Source of the DNA: a virus
Strand: one strand, 5' to 3'
DNA: 51,561 nucleotides
Virus record (IMG/VR): IMGVR_UViG_3300046680_000139
Coordinates: 1-51,561 of that record
Shown: positions 6,117 through 37,981 of the stretch, piece by piece
How the letters are laid out: the number at the start of each line of letters is the position of its first letter
How positions within the stretch are numbered: position 1 is the stretch's first letter
Notes under the pieces: model-generated
What the model was told of the DNA's origin: nothing
Seen by the model: the letters and a program-made list of their open reading frames with translations, nothing else
Database searches by the model: none
Position numbers and translations under genes: made by a program

Positions 6117-7928
6117 TTACTCCTTTGCCTCGCTCCAGTTCTTACCTAAGCCGCTATCGACTGATAACGGGATCGAAAGCGGCACCGCCGTCTGCATGAT
6201 GTTTACCATTTCCTTAAACGCCTCCTTACCTGCCTTGGTAGGCGGCACCGACATATCTAATTCGTCGTGCACCGTCATGTGCGGGGGACCGAGCACGTCA
6301 CAGACGCCACTCTTCCAAACCAGTGACATTGACTGCTTTAAGATGTCCGCCGCGCTACCCTGGATATACGCATTCAAAGCGCGGTACGTGAACGCACGCC
6401 TGGAGCCGAGCGTACGATCGCGCGAGTACGACGGCTTACCGTCACGGTCGAACTTTTCCCATAACGGAAAGCGCCGCACGCGGCCTAAAATCGTGCTGAT
6501 CTGGCCATCGCGCTCGGCTTTATCCATGAACATAGCGCTTAACGGTTTCATGAATGGCGCGCGATTGTAATATTGACTTATTACTCTGCTAGCCAAACCC
6601 ATATCCATACCGAGTTGTGATGCGATCTTTTTAGTACCAGCACCATACGCGCAAGCAAACGTGATCGTCTTAGCCATAATTCTAGGTAGCCCAGTCATTT
6701 CCGCAACCACCGCATGAAAGTCTGTTTTCGCATTACTGTTATATGCGGCTACAAATTTATGCGATCCCCAAATATGTTCATCAGCAGCGGTTGCCGCGAT
6801 TAACCGAAATTCGATCTGGCTAAAGTCGGTCGCTCCAAAGAGCTGGCCTTCATCGGGCAGGAATAACGTGCGCAGGATTGCACCCTCCTTACTGCGCACC
6901 GGGATCTGTTGCAGATTTGGGTGCGACGAGCTGAACCGGCCTGACACCGTGCCGCTTTCGTCGCTTCGCAGCTGGTTGAACGAACAGTGAATGCGGCCTT
7001 TGTAATTACTGTCCAAGACAACGCCTTTGACGAAAGTCTCCCGCAATTTATCGGTCTGCCGGATTGCGTGCACCGTTTTGGCAATCGGGTGCGGGCATGC
7101 CGCTAACCAATCCTTCGTGAATGACGGCGCATTGGTCTTCGGCGTGCGAGGATATTCCACTCCTTCTTTGTCGAACAGTTTGGCAATGGCTCGAGCATTC
7201 CACGGCGGAATATCGCCGATCGTCCTGGACAGTTTTTTTTGCTGCTTCGTCATCTTGATGTAGAGCGCCTCCGCAGCATCCAGATCAACTCGCACGCCTC
7301 GCAGCCGCATATCGACCAGCATCGGAATGAGACTGCTTTCCATTAAAAACAGCTCCCACAAATCCTGCTGTTCTAGCGCCTTACGCTGCTTGGTAAATAT
7401 CTGCAGCGGTAACTTGGCGTCGTCGATCGCGTAAGGCGCAACGATCTTACCGGGTGCGCGCCAGATGTTGCCGCCGATATTTCGTCCACCGAATTTTTTC
7501 GTAATCCATTCATTCATGGCTTCCGATTGTTTGCCCCTGCCCAAATAATCTGACGCCAAGGCTTCCAGCGAATAAGATCTTCGTCCTTCGTCGAGTAGCG
7601 GTTCTGCGATCTGGATATCGTAGATCGGACCATTGACTAAAACGCCAGCTTTTTTCAAGAAGCCTAGATCGTAAGCCGCATGCGCGAACAATTTGGGTGT
7701 GGAGGATTTCAATTCCTGCTTTAACCATGCCAGTACCTTTTTCTTGTCGAGGTTGTCGCCACCTTCGTGTGCGATTGGGTAGTAACCGGCAAAGGTATCG
7801 GTAGCGATTGCAACCCCTGCGATGAAGCCACCACGATGGTAGCCCGGTCCTTGCGTTAGCAAATCCGGATCGAAGGTTTCCGTGTCTATTGAAATTATCT
7901 TTGCCGATTTCAACGATGGGAATTGCAT
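6117..7928 (-). CDS. Family A DNA polymerase with 3'-5' exonuclease domain
   Basis: PolA-type replicative polymerase of 603 aa without a 5' nuclease domain. Exo I is DTETFD (Asp15, Glu17), Exo II AHAAYDLGFL and Exo III YAIDDAKL, all acidic residues retained, so proofreading should be active. Polymerase motif A is DFSQIEFRLI (about 368), motif B has R..xK..xF..xYG spacing (IMAKTITFACAYG, Lys420, Phe424, Tyr428), and motif C is VHDELD (about 553-558). The ATG at 7928 overlaps the upstream stop (TGATG) and has AGGAAG upstream; a GTG one codon earlier is also possible. It lies in a tight leftward operon with nucleotide-metabolism and modification genes. Confidence 0.95.
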   Translation of the reverse strand: MQFPSLKSAKIISIDTETFDPDLLTQGPGYHRGGFIAGVAIATDTFAGYYPIAHEGGDNLDKKKVLAWLKQELKSSTPKLFAHAAYDLGFLKKAGVLVNGPIYDIQIAEPLLDEGRRSYSLEALASDYLGRGKQSEAMNEWITKKFGGRNIGGNIWRAPGKIVAPYAIDDAKLPLQIFTKQRKALEQQDLWELFLMESSLIPMLVDMRLRGVRVDLDAAEALYIKMTKQQKKLSRTIGDIPPWNARAIAKLFDKEGVEYPRTPKTNAPSFTKDWLAACPHPIAKTVHAIRQTDKLRETFVKGVVLDSNYKGRIHCSFNQLRSDESGTVSGRFSSSHPNLQQIPVRSKEGAILRTLFLPDEGQLFGATDFSQIEFRLIAATAADEHIWGSHKFVAAYNSNAKTDFHAVVAEMTGLPRIMAKTITFACAYGAGTKKIASQLGMDMGLASRVISQYYNRAPFMKPLSAMFMDKAERDGQISTILGRVRRFPLWEKFDRDGKPSYSRDRTLGSRRAFTYRALNAYIQGSAADILKQSMSLVWKSGVCDVLGPPHMTVHDELDMSVPPTKAGKEAFKEMVNIMQTAVPLSIPLSVDSGLGKNWSEAKE

Positions 7929-8359
7929 CACTCGTCTTCCTGCTTGGCGTCGTGGTGCCCACCGTCATCCGGAGTGCCAGCCTTAAATAATTCTTCGGTG
8001 TTGCTCAGCAGTCCTAACTCCAGCGTACCGCGTGCGGTCATCTCGGCTTCCACCAGCAGCAAATACCGCCGCAGGTCACGCACCTCTGCCAGTATCGAAC
8101 CGTCTTCGCCCGTGGGGTTAGCTTCAATCTCGGCAAATAGATCGTACGCAGGTTTGCTGCCTTCCAACATATTCTCCAGCCGGTCCCACTTACGCGCCAG
8201 CATCATGAACGCACCAACGCCACCGCGCTTTTTCCAGCTGCCTTTATAAGTGCGCTCTTTCTCCAGGAGCAGCGTCACGTCTGCACTGGCGATGTCTGAC
8301 AAGTACCGAAGGTACGCGTCGTCGAAATTTGGCTTTAACGAGATTGGGTATCGTCGCAT
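7928..8359 (-). CDS. Nmad1/DUF1599-like nucleotide-modification-associated protein
   Basis: Product of 143 aa. The segment EKERTYKGSWKKRGG followed by AFMMLARKWDRLENML, then an acidic spacer and AEVRDLRRYLLLVEAEM, matches the pattern I know for DUF1599 (nucleotide modification associated domain 1): Y..SW, G, RK.DRL and a D..RYL helix. Known members accompany phage base-modification genes, but their activity is not established. The gene overlaps the HD phosphohydrolase upstream by about 25 bp and the polymerase downstream by 1 bp, so all three are probably translationally coupled. The family call is by eye and should be tested with a profile search. Confidence 0.65.
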   Translation of the reverse strand: MRRYPISLKPNFDDAYLRYLSDIASADVTLLLEKERTYKGSWKKRGGVGAFMMLARKWDRLENMLEGSKPAYDLFAEIEANPTGEDGSILAEVRDLRRYLLLVEAEMTARGTLELGLLSNTEELFKAGTPDDGGHHDAKQEDE

Positions 8360-8865
8360 CTGATATTCTCCCTTGCTAGATATTTGAAGATTGCCATGCC
8401 GTCTTCGTCTAAAAGCGGTAGCCGTTCTAGCGCCTTTAACGTATCGTCCACGATCGGTTGCGCGAATTTGTTACCCATCGCGACTTCAGCTAAGCCGCAT
8501 TCGTGCATGTCGATTAAGTCGCACGCCTTGGCACGAATTTTCATATCTGCAGATAAAGTATTATTTGGCTTACCTCCTGCCATCTTTTCAACCGCTTGAT
8601 CTTCAAGTTTATCCATCGCTTCCTTGAGCTCGAAGTTATTTGCTTTAACAGGAAACGGTAAATCTCCGCACGCCAATTCACCCGCGTCGTGCCAGATAAA
8701 ATACGTCGTCAGCTCCGGTGGCAATTGTCCCCAGATCTGCCAATAAATCCGCATAACCTGCCACGTGTGTTCACCAACGGTCTGCCGGTGGTGCATCGGC
8801 CACGTGTGATACCGCACTACCTCGCCAGCCAGCCGTGCAGTTGCTAATAACTTTTCCCGGTTCAT
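8335..8865 (-). CDS. HD-domain phosphohydrolase, YfbR-like (5'-deoxynucleotidase)
   Basis: Product of 176 aa. Metal ligands of an HD hydrolase are visible: His33 in TVGEHTW, His59-Asp60 in FIWHDAGE, and an Asp at 116 or 119 in ACDLIDMHE. WPMHHRQTVGEH is typical of YfbR-like dNMP phosphatases, which remove the 5' phosphate from deoxynucleoside monophosphates. In phages with modified bases such enzymes can remove canonical or host dNMPs. The ATG at 8865 has AGGAG about 7 nt upstream and overlaps the end of the TS-like gene (ATGA-type overlap), which suggests co-translation. Substrate choice is inferred. Confidence 0.85.
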   Translation of the reverse strand: MNREKLLATARLAGEVVRYHTWPMHHRQTVGEHTWQVMRIYWQIWGQLPPELTTYFIWHDAGELACGDLPFPVKANNFELKEAMDKLEDQAVEKMAGGKPNNTLSADMKIRAKACDLIDMHECGLAEVAMGNKFAQPIVDDTLKALERLPLLDEDGMAIFKYLARENIRCDDTQSR

Positions 8866-9800
8866 AGTTTGCTCCTGCGTGCGACCCATTCCTGTGCAGC
8901 GATACGCCAGTCTTGTGCTTTGACTTGCTCGAGACATTCTTTAACGTCGCGTGCCACGTGCCGTACCAGATACGCCTCCAGCATCCAATAAACCGTTTCC
9001 GATAAAAACAGATTGCGCACTGGTTTCCAGCCTTCCATCAGCATGCGTAATTCGTCGTCGAAACTTGCCGGGTCATCGACTAATGGTACCGTTGGATAAT
9101 GCCGCGCATCAGCCATGGAGCCTGGATGCCGCTCCAGCTCGTTCACGTAAACATGAAAATTATTACTGACTTGGTAATACGTACCGAGTTCTACGCCGAT
9201 CTGTGCAGCCAGATATTCCTGCAGGATCGAGAAGTGCACGGCGTTGGCTCCGTATGCTCCCCAGAGTATGTCATTAGACCTACAGCAGACCGTCATGTCG
9301 AGATGCCGATCGCGAATACGTAAATAAATATGTGTGTTGCATGGTCGATCCTTCAGCTCTGGCCGGTCCAGGTCGTCATTCGGGTCCCACATAGTAATGA
9401 CGGCTTGCCGCGTCGAAGGCTCGTGCTGGAGCATGCGGATAACCGTCTGCAGCTGGTCCATACTGAACTGATTACGCCAGCGGTACCCGTACGCGCCGTG
9501 GACAACTCCAGTCGGCTCGGCAAAGCGCGCACCGAAGGTTTTAACGAACTGATCGAGGTAGGCGCTGTCATTGCGACCTGCCAGCATCCACATCGCCTCG
9601 GCAAGATGAAAGAACGGGTTAGCGTCTCGAGTTGCCGAGAACAATACCCGTTCATTCGGTTTGTGATAAACCGTCGTGACTGGGGTTGGTGCCACGAATA
9701 CGCGTCCTGCGCGGCTCGGCTCGTTACTGCCGTATTGCATTACATAATCTATACCTAGCGGCAAAGCCTCGGCAACATTGCGTGCGAAGATGACGTGCAT
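8862..9800 (-). CDS. Thymidylate-synthase-family enzyme (dTMP synthase or dUMP hydroxymethylase)
   Basis: Product of 312 aa with the ThyA core: a LAEAMWMLAG segment like ELLWFL, HGAYGYRWR like GPVYGKQWR, nucleophile Cys154 in DRPCNTHIYL, phosphate-binding CRSNDILWG (Arg174), Asn186 in GANAVHF and His216/Tyr218 in NNFHVY. Asn186 aligns with the Asn that selects dUMP; dCMP hydroxymethylases carry Asp there. The enzyme is divergent from cellular ThyA and lacks the usual C-terminal sequence. It therefore acts on dUMP, making either dTMP or 5-hydroxymethyl-dUMP, the entry step for hypermodified thymines. Its company (Nmad1-like, HD nucleotidase, hypermodification protein) favours the second option by inference. 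Confidence 0.88.
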   Translation of the reverse strand: MHVIFARNVAEALPLGIDYVMQYGSNEPSRAGRVFVAPTPVTTVYHKPNERVLFSATRDANPFFHLAEAMWMLAGRNDSAYLDQFVKTFGARFAEPTGVVHGAYGYRWRNQFSMDQLQTVIRMLQHEPSTRQAVITMWDPNDDLDRPELKDRPCNTHIYLRIRDRHLDMTVCCRSNDILWGAYGANAVHFSILQEYLAAQIGVELGTYYQVSNNFHVYVNELERHPGSMADARHYPTVPLVDDPASFDDELRMLMEGWKPVRNLFLSETVYWMLEAYLVRHVARDVKECLEQVKAQDWRIAAQEWVARRSKL

Positions 9801-10298
9801 TTAGTGATCCCCGTTTAAGGCTTCGGAAAGCGAACGCAAGCCGTGACGTTTTAAATATTGCGCCATGTCGCGACTGGTGTTTGCTGCCTTCATCGTACGA
9901 TCGGCGATGTCACGCTTCATATTGAAATTGTGCATCCAATCATCCGCTGAAGCTTTAATTGACGGCACCCAAGGTGCCGCCGGTCCTTCTGCTGTTGCAA
10001 TCCACGCCGGTAATTTGTGCATCGTCTGCACTAGATCGGGTGGTGCGTTACGCATTGGCATACGGAAAACATTTTCCGGCAACGCTGCTTTGAATTGCCG
10101 ATCGGTTTCCGCGCCTACGGCTTGGGCAGTGGCGTGGATAACGTACGCGTGCCCAATGCCATAATGTGCCGGACCACCGCCTTGGGTGATCCGGTGCATC
10201 GCTTTGACAATGACAGTCTGTTTAGTAGTGCTGCCCTTGCGCTGCTCATCTTTCAGGATGGCAGTAACAAGTTTCTGGATTTGCTTCGGTGCCGACAT
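9801..10298 (-). CDS. Hypothetical protein (165 aa) in modification cassette
   Basis: No family recognised. The start at 10298 has GGGAGGAAG upstream, so the longer frame to 10340 is not needed. The N-terminus is basic and helical (APKQIQKLVTAILKDEQRKGS), a GPAHYGIGHAYVIHATAQAVG segment follows, and the C-terminus (MKRDIADRTMKAANTS, AQYLKRHGLRSLSEAL) is helical and basic. It ends 1 bp before the TS-like gene and begins 2 bp after the DUF3102-like gene, so it is in the same operon and may be a DNA-binding or regulatory component. Function unknown. Confidence 0.7.
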   Translation of the reverse strand: MSAPKQIQKLVTAILKDEQRKGSTTKQTVIVKAMHRITQGGGPAHYGIGHAYVIHATAQAVGAETDRQFKAALPENVFRMPMRNAPPDLVQTMHKLPAWIATAEGPAAPWVPSIKASADDWMHNFNMKRDIADRTMKAANTSRDMAQYLKRHGLRSLSEALNGDH

Positions 10299-10299
10299 A

Positions 10300-11007
10300 T
10301 TAATCTTCCTCCCACTTATTCCATTCTTTGGCCAACTCATTTAGCCAAAGCCGAGCCTTCTCGATTTTCTTTTCCTCGTTGTGGTCCCACCGTTGATGCG
10401 GCAGCATGAACTTGATAAAATTAAGTGGGGTCAGTTCGACTTCAGCCAACGCCTCGATGGCATCCTTCACGCCGTAGACAACGGTGCGACGATCTTCACC
10501 GAGTTGCGCATCTGACTTGGACGTACCGAAGTAGATGTATCCATCCGAAGCTTGCACCGGTTGGCCAGTTTCTTTAGCTTGCTTGTTGGCTTCGGTTGGC
10601 TTTGGGTATCGATGCTCAGCAATAATTTTACCTGCATGCCTTGCAGTAACCCTTTCACCTTTTCGGATACGCTCGATAACTTCATTTTTACCAGCGTCTG
10701 GGACTGTGTCTTGCGCAAGCATGACCAGTATCCGCCTACTTATAGCCGGTAGTTCTCGAGAACTACCGAACTTTTCAGCGACTTTCATGAAATTATAAGC
10801 GGTACGCGGATCTATACCGACTTGGTCCCTAATCCAATTTTGCCAGCCTGGACGAGCACCCTTAACAAGCGGAAAGTTTTCTCGTGCAGCCAACAATTCT
10901 TTACCAAGTTCGATAGTATTCTTACTCCAGTCATCCATCAGTTTATGGATACGCTTGGTGAAACCTTCCAGGACAGACGGTAGTTTGACAACGTTCGTAG
11001 TGTTCAT
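10300..11007 (-). CDS. DUF3102-like DNA-binding protein
   Basis: Product of about 235 aa. IELGKELLAARENFP followed by GWQNWIRDQVGIDPRTAYNF and KVAEKFG matches the DUF3102 pattern (commitment to WI, then a helix-turn-helix-like RTAYNFMKVAE stretch). A later ERVTARHAGKIIAEHRY part resembles ParB-type helices. The ATG at 11007 has GGGAG upstream. It overlaps the FkbM methyltransferase stop by 4 bp. Likely a DNA-binding regulator or plasmid/phage maintenance-type protein; target unknown. Confidence 0.7.
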   Translation of the reverse strand: MNTTNVVKLPSVLEGFTKRIHKLMDDWSKNTIELGKELLAARENFPLVKGARPGWQNWIRDQVGIDPRTAYNFMKVAEKFGSSRELPAISRRILVMLAQDTVPDAGKNEVIERIRKGERVTARHAGKIIAEHRYPKPTEANKQAKETGQPVQASDGYIYFGTSKSDAQLGEDRRTVVYGVKDAIEALAEVELTPLNFIKFMLPHQRWDHNEEKKIEKARLWLNELAKEWNKWEED

Positions 11008-11717
11008 CGCTTTAGCTCCCAACAGTAAATGCAGCGGTCAAAGTAGGTACGACCCGTGCCAGTGCCGCGCTTCACCAGCCGTGCCAGCTCCGGACAATAA
11101 ACAACATTCTTGTAAATTTTCCGGAGGATACGAATACGCTTTACTAAATGTGGTAGCGAATTGTCGCGAGATAAATGGTACTCGAAGACCAATTTCGGTG
11201 CACGTGGCAGTAAGCCGTCATCGATAATTCCAAACTCGCTACCTTCGATATCCATCTTTACGCCGTCGAATTTATCCTCATTCAGCAACGACGCCTCCAG
11301 GTTCTGCACCGTGGTCTGTGGATATTTGCCTTTGCGGGGTAACAGCGTCGATCGATACCGGTCCTGCTTGCGCCGTGGTTCGTAAAATGTCACCTCGTCC
11401 GCGTCCACGTTCGTGACGGCTTTATTATACAACTTAAATTCCGGGACGTTCTTGGCCAAGATCGCAAAGCAGTCCGGCATGGGTTCGTAACATTCTGCCG
11501 TTGCGCCTTTGCTTTTACAATAAAGCGCGAACGCACCGATATTCGCGCCAAGGTCCAGCCAGTGCTCACCAGCTTCCACGTCAAAGTTGACGCTACCGCG
11601 ACGGTACGCGCGCTTGCCGATGACTTCCTCCAGCGCGTTCACGTCAGACGTACCGGGACGGTAATACGCCTTGACTTTCGCCTTGCCGAACGTACCGCGT
11701 GCTAACTTATTTGCCAT
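11004..11717 (-). CDS. FkbM-family SAM-dependent methyltransferase
   Basis: Product of 237 aa. SAM-binding motif I is HWLDLGANIGAFALY (about 52-66), an acidic motif II residue lies in CYEPMP (Glu78), and the FkbM signature DGVKMDIEGSE is at about 151-161. FkbM enzymes typically O-methylate sugars or other small groups. AAAGGAG lies 9 nt upstream of the ATG at 11717, so upstream in-frame sequence to 11918 is not used. It directly follows, and slightly overlaps, the base hypermodification gene, so its substrate may be a hydroxyl or amine on a hypermodified base; alternatively it may modify a surface glycan. The family is secure, the substrate is inferred. Confidence 0.88.
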   Translation of the reverse strand: MANKLARGTFGKAKVKAYYRPGTSDVNALEEVIGKRAYRRGSVNFDVEAGEHWLDLGANIGAFALYCKSKGATAECYEPMPDCFAILAKNVPEFKLYNKAVTNVDADEVTFYEPRRKQDRYRSTLLPRKGKYPQTTVQNLEASLLNEDKFDGVKMDIEGSEFGIIDDGLLPRAPKLVFEYHLSRDNSLPHLVKRIRILRKIYKNVVYCPELARLVKRGTGTGRTYFDRCIYCWELKR

Positions 11718-12516
11718 TTCTGAAAATCTCCTTTGGCGTTCCTTCTCCGAGTCGTGTTCTTTCGTATTTATCGAATTCACATAACGTGTGCTCAACCTCC
11801 CGCATTTCCCACTCCGGCCATTCCTGCGGCCAGTACTTTTTATTTCGGGAAAGCCGCAGCAGGACTTTTGCGGCCGCAAGTTGTGAAACGTCTTTACCGA
11901 AGACGCGCTCCAGACCACGCGACGAACCAGGACCGAAATTCGCCCACGTCATAATATCTTCGGCATCCTTCAGCAGTGCAGTATGCCGAAGATCGCTCAC
12001 GACTTCGTACGCCATGAAATCCCCCATGCAGGTGGACTTCATCCATTGCGCCGCTTCCTGCAGCGTGCCGAATTTAAATTTACGCCAATCTTTATGCGCT
12101 TCGTACCAGATTTCGATTGCCTTTAAGACGCCTTCCTGTTTGGTTGGCGCTTTCAAACAGGTTGTGTAAATCATATACGCCCCGGTTACGTAAGGCGGTG
12201 GTAACTTGGCAATCGCTTTTCGTAATTTTGCCGGCGATAAATAGTTTTTATCTTTCTTAATTACTTCGCCAGTCGTCACGCGGTTGAACCAGCGGAAGAC
12301 TACCGTTGCCGGGAGTACGTCGATGGAGTTACGTAACGGGTTACGAAGATTTTTTGCAAACCAAATCGTGGTTGCATCCAGCTCGCGAAAAACATTTGTG
12401 AAACGGTACCGCTGCAGAATTGGATCGAGTGTCCACGGCAGCGGTTTACCGTCGCGTCGATTTAAATAAGTTTGATGGCGGTGGCGTGCGAACGCAAAGA
12501 AGGCATCAGGTTGCAT
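11707..12516 (-). CDS. DNA base hypermodification protein (5-hmdU DNA kinase helical domain / aGPT-PPlase-like)
   Basis: Product of 269 aa. The N-terminus has R..RHQTYLNRRDGKPLPWT followed by DPILQRYRFTNVFRELD (about 31-47), the signature of the helical domain in 5-hmdU DNA kinases and the alpha-glutamyl/putrescinyl-thymine pyrophosphorylase group, proteins linked to thymine hypermodification in phages. The remainder is helical with basic residues, ending in a W-rich segment (KKYWPQEWPEWEMREVEHTLCEFDKYERTR). No P-loop is seen, so the kinase part is absent here. It is the first gene of the leftward operon, with TGGAG 9 nt before the ATG, and overlaps the FkbM gene. It probably recognises or activates 5-hydroxymethyluracil in DNA; the exact reaction is not known. 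Confidence 0.8.
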   Translation of the reverse strand: MQPDAFFAFARHRHQTYLNRRDGKPLPWTLDPILQRYRFTNVFRELDATTIWFAKNLRNPLRNSIDVLPATVVFRWFNRVTTGEVIKKDKNYLSPAKLRKAIAKLPPPYVTGAYMIYTTCLKAPTKQEGVLKAIEIWYEAHKDWRKFKFGTLQEAAQWMKSTCMGDFMAYEVVSDLRHTALLKDAEDIMTWANFGPGSSRGLERVFGKDVSQLAAAKVLLRLSRNKKYWPQEWPEWEMREVEHTLCEFDKYERTRLGEGTPKEIFRNGK

Positions 12517-18814: not shown

Positions 18815-19477
18815 ATGAAGAAACTTGTTGTAATGCTGGCAGCACTTTCGCTGTCAGTGGGGATAGGGACGACACAAGCTGCGACGCTTGGACCGGACCT
18901 TGCAACCGAAGGGCTCACTTATAATTTCTCAATTATTGGTGGCGCTCTTAACTCGACGTCCGCTACGTTCCAAGTTGAAATCACCGGCATCAATGTTGTT
19001 GGTACCGACACGAGACTTGGACGCAGCGGCATCAACGCCTTTGCTTTTAGTACACCGAACCTTCCCACTATTTCGTCAGGCAGCACCACGCTTGTTGGTG
19101 CGACCTTTCAAAGTACTGGATTGAATTCCGGTGGCTGCAGCAATGGTGGTGGGTTCTTCTGTTTCGGAAATACTGGTGTCGCTGGTACACCTGCACTTGC
19201 TTCCGGTACAGTTATCGACATCGACTTCACGTTGAACTTGGCTTCGGGAAATTTCCTCGCGTGGGACCCCGCGTTCAAGATCGACTGGGCCGGTAATCAG
19301 AATAACTTCAGTCTTGTTTCTGAAACTATTCCGCTTGGACCGAACGGGACACCGTTCAGCTCTCCACCGGGTGAGACACCGCTTCCAGCAGCCGTATGGC
19401 TGTTTGGTAGCGCTCTAGGCGGTGGCGCGTTGCTGCTGCGTAGGCGTAAGAAGGCTGCAGCGATCGTTGCGGCCTAG
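18815..19477 (+). CDS. Secreted PEP-CTERM (VPLPA-type) sorting-domain protein 1
   Basis: Product of 220 aa with a clear signal peptide (MKKLVVMLAALSLSVGIG, likely cleavage after TQA at about 23), a Ser/Thr/Asn/Gly-rich mature region with one likely disulphide (GGCSNGGGFFCFG) and a tripartite sorting tail at about 188-213: TPLPA, a hydrophobic AVWLFGSALGGGALLL helix and an RRRKK cluster. This tail is recognised by exosortase/EpsH systems of Gram-negative bacteria that make exopolysaccharide. AGGAGA is 4-6 nt before the ATG. No exosortase is in the window, so host machinery would be needed. Such proteins are rare on phages; see findings. Confidence 0.85.
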   Translation: MKKLVVMLAALSLSVGIGTTQAATLGPDLATEGLTYNFSIIGGALNSTSATFQVEITGINVVGTDTRLGRSGINAFAFSTPNLPTISSGSTTLVGATFQSTGLNSGGCSNGGGFFCFGNTGVAGTPALASGTVIDIDFTLNLASGNFLAWDPAFKIDWAGNQNNFSLVSETIPLGPNGTPFSSPPGETPLPAAVWLFGSALGGGALLLRRRKKAAAIVAA

Positions 19478-19501
19478 AGGCAACCTTGCAAGGAGTGTTT
19501 G

Positions 19502-20098
19502 ATGAAGAAACTACTGCTTGCTGCGGCTACCGTACTCGCCATGTCGGCGGTTGCGATGGCCGATACCGTTTCCAGCTTGGGGACTAACCCCACGTCTGGA
19601 GCCGGAGCCTTTGCCAATACCAATCCCGGTACTGGTGGAGGCGGTTCAGGATTGTTTGCCGACATCTACACGTTCGATCTTGTCGGTGCGCAGGTCCTGA
19701 CCATTGCGTTCGCTACCAACACGTTTGCGTCTGGCGACCCGCAATTCATTACCAACTTTCAAGGCGCGGTAGTGAATGACGGACCCAACGGCGTACCCGG
19801 TGGTGGTGACGACTTCGTTGTACTCGGTCCTGAACTAGCAGCGGCATGCATTGGTATCCCGAACTGTCAAGTGTTTGGCGGTTCAGCGGTACTCTCCGGT
19901 GGCAGCTATTATTTGCTGATCACCGGCAACGCGGGTGTCGATGCTGGCTACGGCGGAAACCTCAGCACGTTTGCTGAGACTCCGATCCCTGGAGCGATCT
20001 GGGGTTTTGCCAGTGCAATCGGTGGAGCGTATCTCGCGATGCGCAATCGCAAGCGGAAATATAAATCCGCTTGGGATCAAAAACTAATAGCGGCCTAA
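19502..20098 (+). CDS. Secreted PEP-CTERM-like sorting-domain protein 2
   Basis: Product of 198 aa. Signal peptide MKKLLLAAATVLAMSAVAMA (cleavage about 20), Gly/Asn-rich mature domain with a Cys pair (AAACIGIPNCQVFGG), and a C-terminal sorting tail TPIPG, hydrophobic AIWGFASAIGGAYLAM, then RNRKRK, followed by 13 extra residues. The PIPGAIW form is a known variant of the PEP-CTERM motif. AAGGAG lies 6 nt before the ATG and 25 bp separate it from the first such gene. The mature domains are only loosely alike, so this is a pair of sorted surface proteins rather than a recent duplicate. Confidence 0.78.
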   Translation: MKKLLLAAATVLAMSAVAMADTVSSLGTNPTSGAGAFANTNPGTGGGGSGLFADIYTFDLVGAQVLTIAFATNTFASGDPQFITNFQGAVVNDGPNGVPGGGDDFVVLGPELAAACIGIPNCQVFGGSAVLSGGSYYLLITGNAGVDAGYGGNLSTFAETPIPGAIWGFASAIGGAYLAMRNRKRKYKSAWDQKLIAA

Positions 20099-33884: not shown

Positions 33885-36023
33885 TCATTCGAAAGAGTAT
33901 GTGTTGAACGCCGTCACGCCACCACCAGCAACTGCAGCCTGTGGAGAACGCTTAATGTTCGTCGGGATAAATGGGCTAGCACCTTTTTCCCAAACGCTGC
34001 CCGGTTTATCCTTATCGCCAAAATTAATATCGACATTCGCAGTACCTACATTACCACCACTGCCAGCACGTAACGCATCATCAATCGTACCACGCGATAA
34101 GAATGGAATAGCTCTACCAGCTCCACTCCAGACACCCGTTCCTGCCGTTGCATCCGCTGCTCGCTGTCTTTCTGCCCATCGACGACCTGCCTCACCATGC
34201 GCAGAAAACCACGCGCCTTCAACTTTATGCATCCCCCAATATTTAGGATTCGACATATACTTAGCGTAATTCGGATCACCTCGCATACCTTGGTCAGTTG
34301 CGTAATCAGTAATGTTTGATCCGGCATAAACTTTGGTAAGCGCGGCCTCTCCTTCTGCAGCTGTCTTTTGGGAAATATTGCCACTGATAAGATGCTTATT
34401 TACAGGACCATATTGTCCTGAATGGAGTGCCTGATTTATTGTCATGTGGCGCATTGCTGCGTAGTTAAATAATTGCTCCAGATTGGATTGAATGCCACCT
34501 TCATGTTGCATCGCGTCAATGGCAAATCTTTTTAACTGCGGATTGCCTTCCAACTCTTTCTTGAACCCCGCGCGTTGATCGGCAAGGCTTCCACTCGGTC
34601 CACTGTCGCCAAGATCGCCAGTCGTCTCCGCTGGTCCACCACCACCCTTGCTCTGCGGAAACGACTGCCCAGCACCTGGACCGCTGCGTCCCATTGGATT
34701 AGCAACGCCTCCACTACCACCACTACCACCAATTGCACCGCCACCACTTTTTTGCTGGTCCCACTTTTGAAACGTATCACGCATTTCGTGCAATAATTTA
34801 TTTGAATCCTTATCTGTCTCAGCTGACTCCTGCACGAGTAACGAAGATCCAGGCTCAACTTCAGCTGCACCAGCCTCCATACTAAATTGCTTCCCGATCC
34901 AGTCCCATAAACCTCCAGCCTTGCCGCCTTCCGGTCCACCGGGCAATTGGCTGTTCATACTATCGATGATCGCGCGCTCGGTACGTATGCTGCCTAACGG
35001 TAACGTCTTATCCTTTTCGTCTTTCTGTTCACCTTCTTTCTTCTTGCCAGTCCACTTAGTAAGGAACGCATCGACTTCACCAAACGCTTTTACAACCCAA
35101 TCAAATTCTTGTTTCGTTGTTGCTAGCGCGGGCATCACATACGTATTAAAGAAAGTTCTAAAATTATCTGCAAACGAATGCGCCTTTTCATTTAGACCGT
35201 CGATACCTTCCTTACCCATCATCTTATTGATACCCTCGATCATCGTATACGCCATGTCGGTCCACAGGCTGGTACCGATAGTCTCGAGGTTCGTCATCGT
35301 CTTGTGATACTTCGCGGCCTCACCTTCCTGAAATTTCCAGGGTTCAATCAACCCCTCCATTCCAACTTTACCAGCCTCGAACGCTGCACGCGATAAACCT
35401 GTAACAGTTGGCAACCACGCTTTGAACCGCTCACCACCATTATTATAAGCTTGTTGAAGAACGTTCAACGCCTCTTGCTGCTTACCGGCATTCATCAACT
35501 GACGAACTTGTTCAGCCAGCGCAGGACTGCTGGCCTGAAGTGATTTATAAAACGAAGACGTTTCTTGTAACGCCAACACTTCCTGTAACTTAGATCCGAT
35601 ACTCGCAATGCCACTAGACGCTTCGCTCGCATCAACTCCAGCAGCAGATAATTGCGTCCGTAAATTCTGAACGCTCTGAACCGTGAACCCGGTATTAGTA
35701 GCAAAGTTACGTAACTGCAACTCACCAACCGCAAACGCATCTAGCGCCTTGGCAACTCCAGCAAAACCAACCGCAAGACCACCCGCGCCTAGTAGCGTCT
35801 TGGCTATTCCCGCCGCAGCTGCGTCCATCGCCTTTATCGGACCGCGCGTATAATGCTCAACGACCTTACCGAACCGCTCGAACTCATCCGCAAGATTGCT
35901 GCCACTTTTGCTGCCAGCATCATTGAGGCTACTAATTTTAAGTTTTAAATTATCGACTTCTTTTCCGAGCTGCTGGAAGAATGCCAGCATCTGATCTGCA
36001 TCGAAATTATTCTGCTGCGGCAT
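33885..36023 (-). CDS. Tape-measure-like protein 2 with C-terminal lysozyme/cell-wall-hydrolase-like domain
   Basis: Product of 712 aa. Residues 1-320 are homologous to the neighbouring 652-aa protein (shared AFF.Q.GKE.DN, LSAAG.DA.EA, LQ.VLALQETSSFYK, RQLMNAGKQQEA, GGERFKAWLPTVTG). A variable Ser/Gly/Pro linker follows, then at about 490-660 a domain with LKRFAIDAMQHEGGIQSN, FNYAAMRHMTINQALHSGQYG, TDYATDQGMRGD and EGAWFSAHGEAGRRW that looks like a lysozyme or SleB-type wall hydrolase (Glu in HEGG a candidate catalytic residue). It probably lines the tail tube and opens the wall at infection. Hydrolase class is tentative. Confidence 0.78.
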   Translation of the reverse strand: MPQQNNFDADQMLAFFQQLGKEVDNLKLKISSLNDAGSKSGSNLADEFERFGKVVEHYTRGPIKAMDAAAAGIAKTLLGAGGLAVGFAGVAKALDAFAVGELQLRNFATNTGFTVQSVQNLRTQLSAAGVDASEASSGIASIGSKLQEVLALQETSSFYKSLQASSPALAEQVRQLMNAGKQQEALNVLQQAYNNGGERFKAWLPTVTGLSRAAFEAGKVGMEGLIEPWKFQEGEAAKYHKTMTNLETIGTSLWTDMAYTMIEGINKMMGKEGIDGLNEKAHSFADNFRTFFNTYVMPALATTKQEFDWVVKAFGEVDAFLTKWTGKKKEGEQKDEKDKTLPLGSIRTERAIIDSMNSQLPGGPEGGKAGGLWDWIGKQFSMEAGAAEVEPGSSLLVQESAETDKDSNKLLHEMRDTFQKWDQQKSGGGAIGGSGGSGGVANPMGRSGPGAGQSFPQSKGGGGPAETTGDLGDSGPSGSLADQRAGFKKELEGNPQLKRFAIDAMQHEGGIQSNLEQLFNYAAMRHMTINQALHSGQYGPVNKHLISGNISQKTAAEGEAALTKVYAGSNITDYATDQGMRGDPNYAKYMSNPKYWGMHKVEGAWFSAHGEAGRRWAERQRAADATAGTGVWSGAGRAIPFLSRGTIDDALRAGSGGNVGTANVDINFGDKDKPGSVWEKGASPFIPTNIKRSPQAAVAGGGVTAFNTYSFE

Positions 36024-37981
36024 TATTCGTACGCAAGCTGGTTGGACTTGTTAAGTTTCAACGTGTTAAATACTCCACCCATTTCCGCGTTGGCCTTCAC
36101 ACCTTCTGGCACGTTATTTAAATTAACATTAAGCTGCGCATTCCACGGACTACCTGAATTCTTCGCTCCCAATGCGTTATCAATTTTTGTTCTATCCTGC
36201 TGCTGCGCTTGCACCGCATCGACCGCAGTCTTACCTGCAAACCGCGTATCCATATCCGTAAGCTTACGTCGCCGTGCGCCGTACTGGTCTGCGAATATTG
36301 CCGTGCCATCTTTCTCGTTATACGATCCCGGCACGATCGTCATAACGTGACCGCCAGTTTGACCAGGAGCTAATACCTGACCTTGCGTACCGCCATAACG
36401 TCCATGGAAATAAGTACTGACCATACTTCCGAACGGATGATTAGGCGCGTTGATATCGTTAGGATCTAATTTCTCACCCCACTTATGCCACGACGTTGCG
36501 ATCGCTGCACCCGTGGGAGGCTTATACCCGGCAGATTTTACGTACCCAGAAGCAACCATACCGCAAGCCGGTCCGGACATTCGATAACCGCGCTGGCTAA
36601 ATAATTTCTGTAACCCCGCAACGTCACCCGCACGACCTAATATCTCTGCCTGACGCATCGTATCAGGATCGATCTTCTTGCCGCCTTCGTCGTTCAAACC
36701 AGCGGGACCACCGGGACTAGCTGTAGAGCTCCCACCGCCTCCACCGCCTCCACCGCCTCCACCGCCTCCACCGATCGCACCAACTCCACCATTAACTTGA
36801 TCGTCCCACTTTTGAATAATATCGCGCATATCCTGCAACGATTTATTTGAATCCTTTTGTACAACTATAATTGAATTCTGATCAACGCCTGACTTAGCTG
36901 AAGCATCACCAACCCCAAGTTGCTTCTTCATCCAATCCCACGAACTAAAATTTTTATCCTTCTCATCTTCATTTTGACGGCGAATAAATTCTTCAGGTCG
37001 TAACCGAAAACCCTGACCAGGATCACGTGTCTGTGCCTGTTTGTTAAACCAATCAATAATATCCTTGGCTTCCTGAAACGTCTCCTTTAAAGTTGGGATG
37101 ACACTGTTGTCAAACCACGTTTTAAAATTATCAGCAAACTTGTGCGCCTTCTCGTTCAACCCCTCGAGACCTTCACTCCCTGTTAATTTAACGATACCTT
37201 CTAAAACAGTATTCGTTACCGAATTCCACACACCATCAAAAATCGTACCTAGATTAACCATCGTCTTATGATACTTCGCAGCATCGCCATCAAGCTCCTT
37301 CCAAGGCATTATCAAACCTTCCATACCTTGTGCTTGCGCCTCCCACGCAGCTCTCGATATCCCTGTGACCGTTGGCAACCACGCTTTAAATCTTTCGCCA
37401 CCTTTATTAAATTTCTCCTGAAGATAATTCATCGCCTCCTGCTGCTTACCAGCATTCATTAACTGGCGAACGTTTTCCGCCATTGCCGGTTCACTAGCTT
37501 GCAGCGCCTTATAAAATGAAGACGTTTCTTGCAAGGCAAGAACGTCCTGTAACTTAGCTCCGATACTCCCGATCCCCTGCGCCGCTTCGTTTGCATCGAT
37601 ACCAGCAGCAGAAAGCTGCACTCGCATTTTCTTCAAACCATCTGTAGAAAAGCCGGTATTAATCGCAAAGTTTCTAGTATGTAATGCGCTAACCGCAAAG
37701 TGATCGAGCGCCTTGCCAACACCACCGATGACCAACGCAAGCTTAGCGACACCTCCAGCCGAACCAATGAGCCCGGATATGCCTGACTCCATTCCACGCA
37801 ATGCGCCTTGCGTGTGTCGCTGAATAGTCTGACCAAACTTTTCAGTATGATCAGTCATTTTCTTCATCGCATTGCCAGCTTCGTTAAGGCTGACAATCTT
37901 GGTCTTAAAGTTATCTATCTCCTTTCCCATCTGGCCGAAGAAAGCCAACATGGCATCGGAATCAAAATCCATGTCAGGCAT
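36023..37981 (-). CDS. Tape-measure-like protein 1 with C-terminal CHAP/NlpC-P60-like peptidase
   Basis: Product of 652 aa. N-terminal half shared with the following paralogue, including two hydrophobic helices (GLIGSAGGVAKLALVIGGVG). A linker with a run of about 14 Gly follows, then a cysteine-peptidase-like domain: GPACGMVASGYVKSAG (Cys473), ATSWHKWG, TGGHVMTIV (His545) and an AIFADQYG end, the arrangement of TIGR02594/CHAP-like endopeptidases. It likely forms part of the tape measure and cuts peptide cross-links. Its stop overlaps the ATG of the paralogue (TAATG). Confidence 0.82.
   Translation of the reverse strand: MPDMDFDSDAMLAFFGQMGKEIDNFKTKIVSLNEAGNAMKKMTDHTEKFGQTIQRHTQGALRGMESGISGLIGSAGGVAKLALVIGGVGKALDHFAVSALHTRNFAINTGFSTDGLKKMRVQLSAAGIDANEAAQGIGSIGAKLQDVLALQETSSFYKALQASEPAMAENVRQLMNAGKQQEAMNYLQEKFNKGGERFKAWLPTVTGISRAAWEAQAQGMEGLIMPWKELDGDAAKYHKTMVNLGTIFDGVWNSVTNTVLEGIVKLTGSEGLEGLNEKAHKFADNFKTWFDNSVIPTLKETFQEAKDIIDWFNKQAQTRDPGQGFRLRPEEFIRRQNEDEKDKNFSSWDWMKKQLGVGDASAKSGVDQNSIIVVQKDSNKSLQDMRDIIQKWDDQVNGGVGAIGGGGGGGGGGGGGGSSTASPGGPAGLNDEGGKKIDPDTMRQAEILGRAGDVAGLQKLFSQRGYRMSGPACGMVASGYVKSAGYKPPTGAAIATSWHKWGEKLDPNDINAPNHPFGSMVSTYFHGRYGGTQGQVLAPGQTGGHVMTIVPGSYNEKDGTAIFADQYGARRRKLTDMDTRFAGKTAVDAVQAQQQDRTKIDNALGAKNSGSPWNAQLNVNLNNVPEGVKANAEMGGVFNTLKLNKSNQLAYE
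36732..36772 (-). repeat. 9-bp tandem repeat coding for polyglycine linker
   Basis: The unit CCACCGCCT is repeated 4.5 times without mismatch and encodes most of the poly-Gly linker of tape-measure-like protein 1. It could change length by slippage in steps of three codons, leaving the frame intact. Confidence 0.9.

What the first reader, a model, noticed from the sequence alone, without database searches (positions are those of the whole stretch)
7928..12516. Candidate thymine hypermodification cassette without a visible 5-hmdU kinase
Seen in one operon: protein with the PWTLDPIL...FTNVFRELD signature, divergent TS-like enzyme with dUMP-type Asn, HD nucleotidase, Nmad1-like protein and two unknown genes. 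Known: hypermodified-thymine phages use a TS-homologous dUMP hydroxymethylase, a dNMP/dTTP-removing enzyme and post-replicative DNA enzymes. Inference: this phage replaces or decorates T through 5-hydroxymethyl-U, but the helical domain lacks its kinase P-loop here, so activation must differ or be done by one of the unknown genes (9801-10298, 10300-11007).
Basis: partly seen in the sequence, partly recalled or inferred. Interest (0 to 1): 0.8.

Follow-up and report, generated by a model that had tools for sequence, protein, structure and literature searches.

The report
Kinase-free thymine-decoration cassette with methyltransferase partner
This phage carries a set of genes that very probably swaps thymine in its DNA for 5-hydroxymethyluracil, and in place of the usual kinase it has an FkbM-type methyltransferase, which suggests it caps the modified base with a methyl group to hide its DNA from bacterial defences.

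Summary
The cassette is real. The 269-aa protein is PF18723 (HMUDK_hel, E=1.5e-42), followed by a dUMP-hydroxymethylase-like thymidylate-synthase homologue and a YfbR-like HD nucleotidase, in the same order as in thymine-hypermodifying phage PaMx11. No 5hmdU kinase and no amino-acid transferase is found in this 51.6-kb record or its relatives, including a collinear 50.6-kb sister record with the same ends.

It is kept in all five related records, whereas the two "unknown" genes proposed to do activation are swappable cargo, precisely replaced by an HNH gene in the sister.

In 109 dereplicated helical-gene loci, a thymidylate-synthase homologue is nearly always present (107). An adjacent kinase occurs in only 25 (20 with the amino-acid transferase) and never beside a TAGT glycosyltransferase, which occurs in 65. 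The helical protein is therefore not kinase-specific, and lack of a kinase is common.

The window's FkbM groups with FkbMs encoded beside ParB and TET/JBP oxygenases, the other source of 5-hydroxymethyl-pyrimidines in DNA. Best reading: 5hmdU is decorated directly, probably by O-methylation, with no phosphorylated intermediate. The product is untested.

The parts
11707..12516 (-). Helical 'HMUDK_hel' (aGPT-Pplase1-type) protein, 269 aa; predicted to handle 5hmdU in DNA
   Evidence: PF18723 E=1.5e-42; phrog_2396; AlphaFold model pLDDT 94, best PDB match is PaMx11 gp46 5-PmdU glycinyltransferase, then HhH DNA glycosylases at low confidence
11004..11717 (-). FkbM-family SAM methyltransferase, 237 aa; start ATG 11717 with Shine-Dalgarno AAGGAGA inside the helical gene, 11-nt overlap; proposed decorator
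   Evidence: PF05050, TIGR01444; SAM-site motif LDLGANIGAF and KMDIEGSEF intact; start and SD; kept in L004, L005/L006, L022, L099
10300..11007 (-). DUF3102-like protein of unknown function; variable slot, not core
   Evidence: weak DUF3102; absent from the sister record L004; homologue in unrelated phage L007
9801..10298 (-). Unknown small protein; variable slot, not core
   Evidence: no family hit; absent from L004; 88% identical copy next to the DUF3102-like gene in L007, whose locus lacks the cassette
8862..9800 (-). Thymidylate-synthase-family protein, predicted dUMP 5-hydroxymethylase
   Evidence: PF00303, phrog_5131; below all TS equivalog cut-offs; C154 and N186
8335..8865 (-). YfbR-like HD 5'-deoxynucleotidase, likely removes dTMP from the pool; start ATG 8865 with SD GCAGGAGC
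   Evidence: PF12917 41 bits, cut-off 25.9; start context
7928..8359 (-). Small conserved protein of unknown function (YxGSWKKRGGxGAFMMLARKWDRxEN family); not Nmad1 by Pfam
   Evidence: recurs near polA in other cassettes
6117..7931 (-). Family A DNA polymerase directly downstream, as in PaMx11 and YuA
   Evidence: PF00476; gene order

Best explanation
A 5hmdU-based thymine-modification cassette of a kinase-free branch. Step 1 (inferred from family and residues): the TS homologue makes 5hmdUMP, and the HD nucleotidase drains dTMP. Step 2 (inferred by analogy with M6/PaMx11): 5hmdU enters the DNA in place of some or all T. Step 3 (inferred): the helical protein, with the same fold as the PaMx11 amino-acid:DNA transferase, binds or presents 5hmdU in DNA, and the overlapping FkbM methyltransferase modifies it directly with SAM, most likely O-methylating the 5-hydroxymethyl group to give 5-methoxymethyl-dU. 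No phosphorylated intermediate is needed, because that intermediate serves only the amino-acid branch. Rough tiers: 5hmdU cassette 0.85; FkbM is the decorator and no kinase is used 0.6; methyl goes directly on the 5hmdU hydroxyl 0.4.
For: Family assignments and active-site residues. Gene order shared with PaMx11 and YuA except for the kinase and amino-acid transferase. No kinase, TAGT or TET/JBP in the window or in the records behind L004, L005, L006, L022 and L099; positive-control records ring in each search. The two ~51-kb records share both ends. FkbM kept in all five relatives at 64-96% identity and overlapping the helical gene, with an HNH inserted between them in L022. In 109 dereplicated loci: TS in 107; adjacent kinase in 25, of which 20 with aGPT2 and none with a glycosyltransferase; glycosyltransferase in 65; FkbM in 10 and never with a kinase. 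Distant FkbMs form a conserved ParB-FkbM-TET/JBP set in about 30 viruses, and the window FkbM groups with these, not with the TAGT-linked FkbMs (split support 99/96). Purified M6 kinase acts on 5hmdU DNA (PMC6449724, PMC7653180), so the helical protein appears not to be needed for phosphorylation.
Against: No chemistry was measured. FkbM enzymes usually methylate sugars or small molecules, and 7 of 10 FkbM-positive helical-gene loci also carry a TAGT, so sugar methylation is plausible there; an unrecognised sugar transferase here cannot be excluded. Phage TET enzymes are known (own knowledge) to act on 5-methylcytosine, so the TET-linked FkbMs may act on cytosine derivatives, although only 1 of 17 TET/FkbM records held a C5-cytosine methylase (many are fragments). 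The helical gene is absent from TET/FkbM loci, so its joint action with FkbM is a guess. The record's completeness is not certified.
Confidence: 0.5

Rival explanations
1. A sugar or other group is first placed on 5hmdU by an unrecognised phage or host transferase, and FkbM methylates that group.
For: FkbM sits next to or near TAGT glycosyltransferases in L042, L097, L146/L284, L148, L152, L153, L162, L194 and L266. In the helical-gene tree the nearest relatives of the window clade include L042, which has TAGT plus FkbM (quick tree).
Against: No TAGT by profile in any of the five related records or the window, no other glycosyltransferase by Pfam in the window ORFs scanned, and the window FkbM belongs to the TET-linked, not the TAGT-linked, clade.
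Confidence: 0.22
2. The classic route operates: 5hmdU is phosphorylated by a kinase that is missing from the record, too divergent to see, or supplied by the host, and the helical protein attaches an amino acid or amine.
For: The helical protein family is named for the kinase (PF18723), and its fold resembles the glycinyltransferase gp46.
Against: No kinase or aGPT2 by profile while controls ring; the sister record with the same ends also lacks them; the helical protein occurs with TAGT and without kinase in most loci; no profile similarity to aGPT2.
Confidence: 0.12
3. 5hmdU is the final base, as in SPO1/SP8, and FkbM acts on something else such as a surface glycan or a protein.
For: FkbM family members mostly act on small molecules or glycans (own knowledge); 5hmdU-only phages exist (PMC7653180).
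Against: FkbM overlaps the helical gene, is kept in all relatives, and its homologues sit beside TET/JBP and ParB in about 30 viruses.
Confidence: 0.12
4. Ordinary nucleotide metabolism: the TS homologue simply makes dTMP and the DNA is canonical.
For: It is a member of the thymidylate synthase superfamily.
Against: Scores below every TS equivalog cut-off, clusters with annotated hydroxymethylases, and a helical gene is present; 107 of 109 helical genes have this TS.
Confidence: 0.04

Closest known systems
PaMx11 / M6 / YuA thymidine hypermodification (Mesyanzhinovviridae)
   Same: Helical gene, hydroxymethylase-like TS, HD nucleotidase and polA in the same order
   Different: PaMx11 and YuA have a P-loop kinase directly before the helical gene and an aGPT-Pplase2 amino-acid transferase; the window has neither, and has FkbM after the helical gene; its virion genes are of a contractile-tailed phage
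HTVC023P-type pelagiphage cassettes (PMC9599517)
   Same: TS plus aG/PT-PPlase1 near polA; the paper also notes a 5'-deoxynucleotidase and a glucosyltransferase in some
   Different: The paper's text does not mention FkbM; a glycosyltransferase rather than a methyltransferase is the added enzyme
TET/JBP cassettes with ParB, TAGT or FkbM
   Same: Homologous FkbM next to an enzyme that makes 5-hydroxymethyl-pyrimidine
   Different: The hydroxymethyl group comes from a TET/JBP oxygenase, with no helical gene and no TS hydroxymethylase nearby
Rhodococcus phage Tonitrus five-gene system (PMC11955845)
   Same: Shows that source and decorator modules are exchangeable
   Different: TET-like source with kinase and aGPT-Pplase2 decorator, the opposite combination to the window
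SPO1/SP8 5hmdU phages
   Same: TS-family route to 5hmdU (SP8 DNA is 100% 5hmdU, PMC7653180)
   Different: No further decoration reported there

Membership tests
PF18723 HMUDK_hel / phrog_2396 | profile match above curated cut-off over the whole domain | tested here: met
   146 bits against cut-off 25, profile positions 5-276 of 281
5hmdU DNA kinase | P-loop kinase domain fused or in the neighbouring gene | tested here: not met
   no Walker A in a kinase-sized ORF, no P0001 match, no match to the six-kinase profile with positive controls ringing
Amino-acid:DNA transferase (aGPT-Pplase2, PaMx11 gp46) | sequence profile match | tested here: not met
   helical protein against aGPT2 profiles: hhalign probability 0.7%; no aGPT2 in the window. 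Fold resemblance only, prob 0.99, TM 0.52, E=0.15
dUMP hydroxymethylase (TS superfamily) | TS fold family with catalytic Cys and dUMP-type Asn, outside the TS equivalogs | tested here: met
   PF00303, C154 and N186, below TS equivalog cut-offs
dUMP hydroxymethylase (TS superfamily) | makes 5hmdUMP rather than dTMP | not testable with these tools
   needs an enzyme assay
FkbM methyltransferase | PF05050/TIGR01444 above cut-off and an intact SAM site | tested here: met
   38.7 bits against 22.7; 58.4 against 37.7; Rossmann-type methyltransferase folds in Foldseek
FkbM methyltransferase | acts on 5hmdU in DNA | not testable with these tools
   only genomic context bears on it
M6/PaMx11-type hypermodification pathway | kinase plus amino-acid transferase | tested here: not met
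YfbR-like 5'-deoxynucleotidase | PF12917 above cut-off | tested here: met
   41.1 bits against 25.9
Nmad1 / DUF1599 (7928-8359) | Pfam match | tested here: not met
   no hit at E<=1 for the window protein and no Nmad1 hit for any of 12 aligned members

The most novel reading that the evidence does not exclude
An FkbM methyltransferase O-methylates 5-hydroxymethyluracil in phage DNA, giving 5-methoxymethyl-dU, a base not found in the literature searched here. Relatives would do the same or similar to hydroxymethyl-pyrimidines made by TET/JBP, so FkbM would be a third general decorator beside kinase/amino-acid transferase and TAGT.
Probability: 0.35. Interest if true: 0.8.

Novelty: new variant of a known kind. 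Interest (0 to 1): 0.6.

Why it matters
It suggests that phage thymine hypermodification is modular: one of two sources of hydroxymethyl-pyrimidine (TS homologue or TET/JBP) combined with one of several decorators (kinase plus amino-acid transferase, TAGT glycosyltransferase, FkbM methyltransferase). It also indicates that the Pfam name '5-hmdU DNA kinase, helical domain' misleads, since most of these genes sampled here sit with no kinase. A small methyl cap on 5hmdU would be a cheap escape from restriction enzymes and uracil-type glycosylases, and two genes (helical protein, FkbM) plus naturally 5hmdU-containing phage DNA would make it directly testable.

Tried and rejected
(1) Activation by the two unknown genes: rejected by their precise absence from the sister record and by the slot's varied contents (HNH, GIY-YIG and others). 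(2) A truncated record hiding the kinase: made unlikely by the sister record with matching ends, not excluded. (3) Nmad1 for 7928-8359: no support. (4) Sequence homology of the helical protein with aGPT-Pplase2: not significant. (5) Fused helical-kinase, helical-FkbM or helical-TAGT ORFs as direct proof of partnership: none among 276 loci. (6) Solved structures of the helical family: none by sequence. (7) Close relatives in GTDB genomes to name a host: only 26-29% hits in Streptomyces and others; FkbM not in plasmids. (8) Literature for FkbM with hydroxymethyluracil or JBP: no paper in the held library. Key papers (Lee 2018, Lee 2022, Iyer 2013, Wen 2024) are not held, so prior mention there cannot be excluded.

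Full report
What is there. The window is a whole IMG/VR virus record of 51,561 bases, classed linear. On the minus strand, in order of transcription, lie: a 269-aa helical protein (11707-12516), an FkbM methyltransferase (11004-11717), a DUF3102-like protein (10300-11007), an unknown protein (9801-10298), a thymidylate-synthase homologue (8862-9800), an HD nucleotidase (8335-8865), a small conserved protein (7928-8359) and a family A DNA polymerase (6117-7931). The helical protein matches PF18723 at E=1.5e-42 and phrog_2396 at 1.4e-54. The TS homologue matches PF00303 and phrog_5131 but falls below every TS equivalog cut-off. It keeps the catalytic Cys and has Asn where CMP hydroxymethylase has Asp. 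The virion genes (sheath, baseplate J, Mu-like gp45/46/48) are those of a contractile-tailed phage, so the cassette is shared with the siphovirus family of PaMx11 by exchange, not by whole-genome kinship (inference).

FkbM starts at ATG 11717 behind a strong Shine-Dalgarno (AAGGAGA) that lies inside the end of the helical gene, an 11-base overlap that suggests translational coupling. Its SAM-binding motif and the K-D-EG-E motif of the family are intact.

No kinase. In PaMx11 and YuA a separate P-loop kinase gene lies directly before the helical gene. In the window there is no kinase-like Walker A ORF, no match to PaMx11 kinase and no match to a six-kinase profile, which does ring in control records. 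The same is true of the five records of the closest relatives. One of them, of 50,593 bases, is collinear with the window from first base to within about 340 bases of the end, so assembly loss in both is unlikely. In that record bases 9801-11003 of the window have no counterpart: an HNH gene fills the slot. In L006 the slot holds a GIY-YIG-like protein and in L022 a DUF3102-like protein; the HNH, GIY-YIG and L022 identities were read by eye. The pair 9801-11007 recurs in L007, a phage locus with another gene complement. These genes are therefore cargo, not core.

Comparative survey. Profiles were built for helical protein, kinase, aGPT2, FAD oxidase, TS, HD, FkbM, polA and glycosyltransferase, and run over all ORFs of the fetched loci. 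After dereplication at 90% helical-protein identity and requiring flanks, 109 loci remain. TS is present in 107 and TET/JBP in none. An adjacent kinase occurs in 25, of which 20 have aGPT2 and none a glycosyltransferase. Of the 84 without an adjacent kinase, one has aGPT2 and 65 have a glycosyltransferase (Fisher p=3e-16 and 5e-13; the loci are related, so the p-values overstate). The representative glycosyltransferase is PF20691 TAGT. FkbM occurs in 10, never with a kinase. The three surveys were seeded differently and one from TAGT loci, so these are patterns of association, not frequencies. In a quick tree of helical proteins the partner changes about 12 times, and the window clade is nested among TAGT-partnered lineages.

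FkbM lineage. A scan for FkbM relatives gave about 30 viruses with a conserved ParB, FkbM, TET/JBP set (Tet_JBP and ParB confirmed by Pfam for examples), including cultured phages HTVC112P (Pelagibacter) and MED4-184 (Prochlorococcus). Other FkbMs lie with TAGT, in both TS and TET cassettes (L146, L148, L152, L153, L162). In a maximum-likelihood tree the window clade groups with the TET-linked FkbMs (split 99/96) and apart from the TAGT-linked ones. Only 1 of 17 TET/FkbM records has a C5-cytosine methylase, a weak hint that the oxygenase acts on thymine.

Fold. The helical protein is predicted with high confidence (pLDDT 94). Its best solved match is PaMx11 gp46, titled 5-phosphomethyl-dU glycinyltransferase (prob 0.99, TM about 0.5, E=0.15), followed weakly by HhH DNA glycosylases. 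Profile comparison shows no sequence kinship. A DNA-base-handling role is thus an inference from fold and context.

How it most likely works. Known: in M6, ViI and phiW-14, 5hmdU in DNA is phosphorylated and then substituted with an amine (PMC6449724); purified M6 kinase acts on 5hmdU DNA (PMC6449724, PMC7653180). The survey ties the kinase to the amino-acid transferase. Where that transferase is absent, the phosphate has no known use, and other enzymes that can act directly on a hydroxyl (TAGT, FkbM) appear instead. In the window clade FkbM is the only such enzyme recognised. Hence the proposal: 5hmdU is made by the TS homologue, incorporated, and capped by FkbM with SAM, helped by the helical protein. 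Shown here: gene content, conservation, exclusion patterns, phylogeny. Inferred: every reaction. The product, 5-methoxymethyl-dU, is a guess among O-methylated options.

Novelty. No paper in the held library joins FkbM with hydroxymethyluracil or with JBP in phage, but the main papers of the field are not held, so priority is uncertain. The kind (5hmdU hypermodification) is known; the kinase-free FkbM branch is rated a new variant.

Noticed in passing
window 18815-19477 and 19499-20098 (+); L004 1443-2726 (-): Two neighbouring phage genes whose sister-record versions end in a sorting tail (small motif, hydrophobic stretch, basic tail) like exosortase substrates; 18815-19477 hits VPLPA-CTERM weakly (E=0.007, below cut-off). 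Phage-encoded exosortase-type surface proteins would be unusual.
   Followed up: no
L102-L143 (IMG/VR), L008 HTVC112P, L009 MED4-184: A conserved ParB, FkbM, TET/JBP gene set in about 30 marine and other viruses, apparently a DNA-modification cassette of its own.
   Followed up: partly
L080 7887-9853, L073 9144-12204, L028, L037: Between helical gene and TS: large uncharacterised proteins (glycosyltransferase-like by eye, no Pfam hit) plus a radical-SAM/SPASM protein, a further possible decorator branch with no TAGT or kinase in L080.
   Followed up: no
L180-L184 (Streptomyces), L179, L185: Helical-protein homologues (26-29% identity) in bacterial and archaeal genome contigs without the phage cassette genes nearby, except a TS in L179.
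   Followed up: partly
window 33885-37981 (-): Two neighbouring large ORFs (712 and 652 aa) share internal repeats of about 630 bases at 70% with the sister record and with each other, perhaps a duplicated tail or tape-measure region.
   Followed up: no
window 7928-8359 (-) and 11 relatives: Unnamed small protein family (motif YxGSWKKRGGxGAFMMLARKWDRxEN...DLRRYLLLVE) recurring beside polA/HD in these cassettes.
   Followed up: partly
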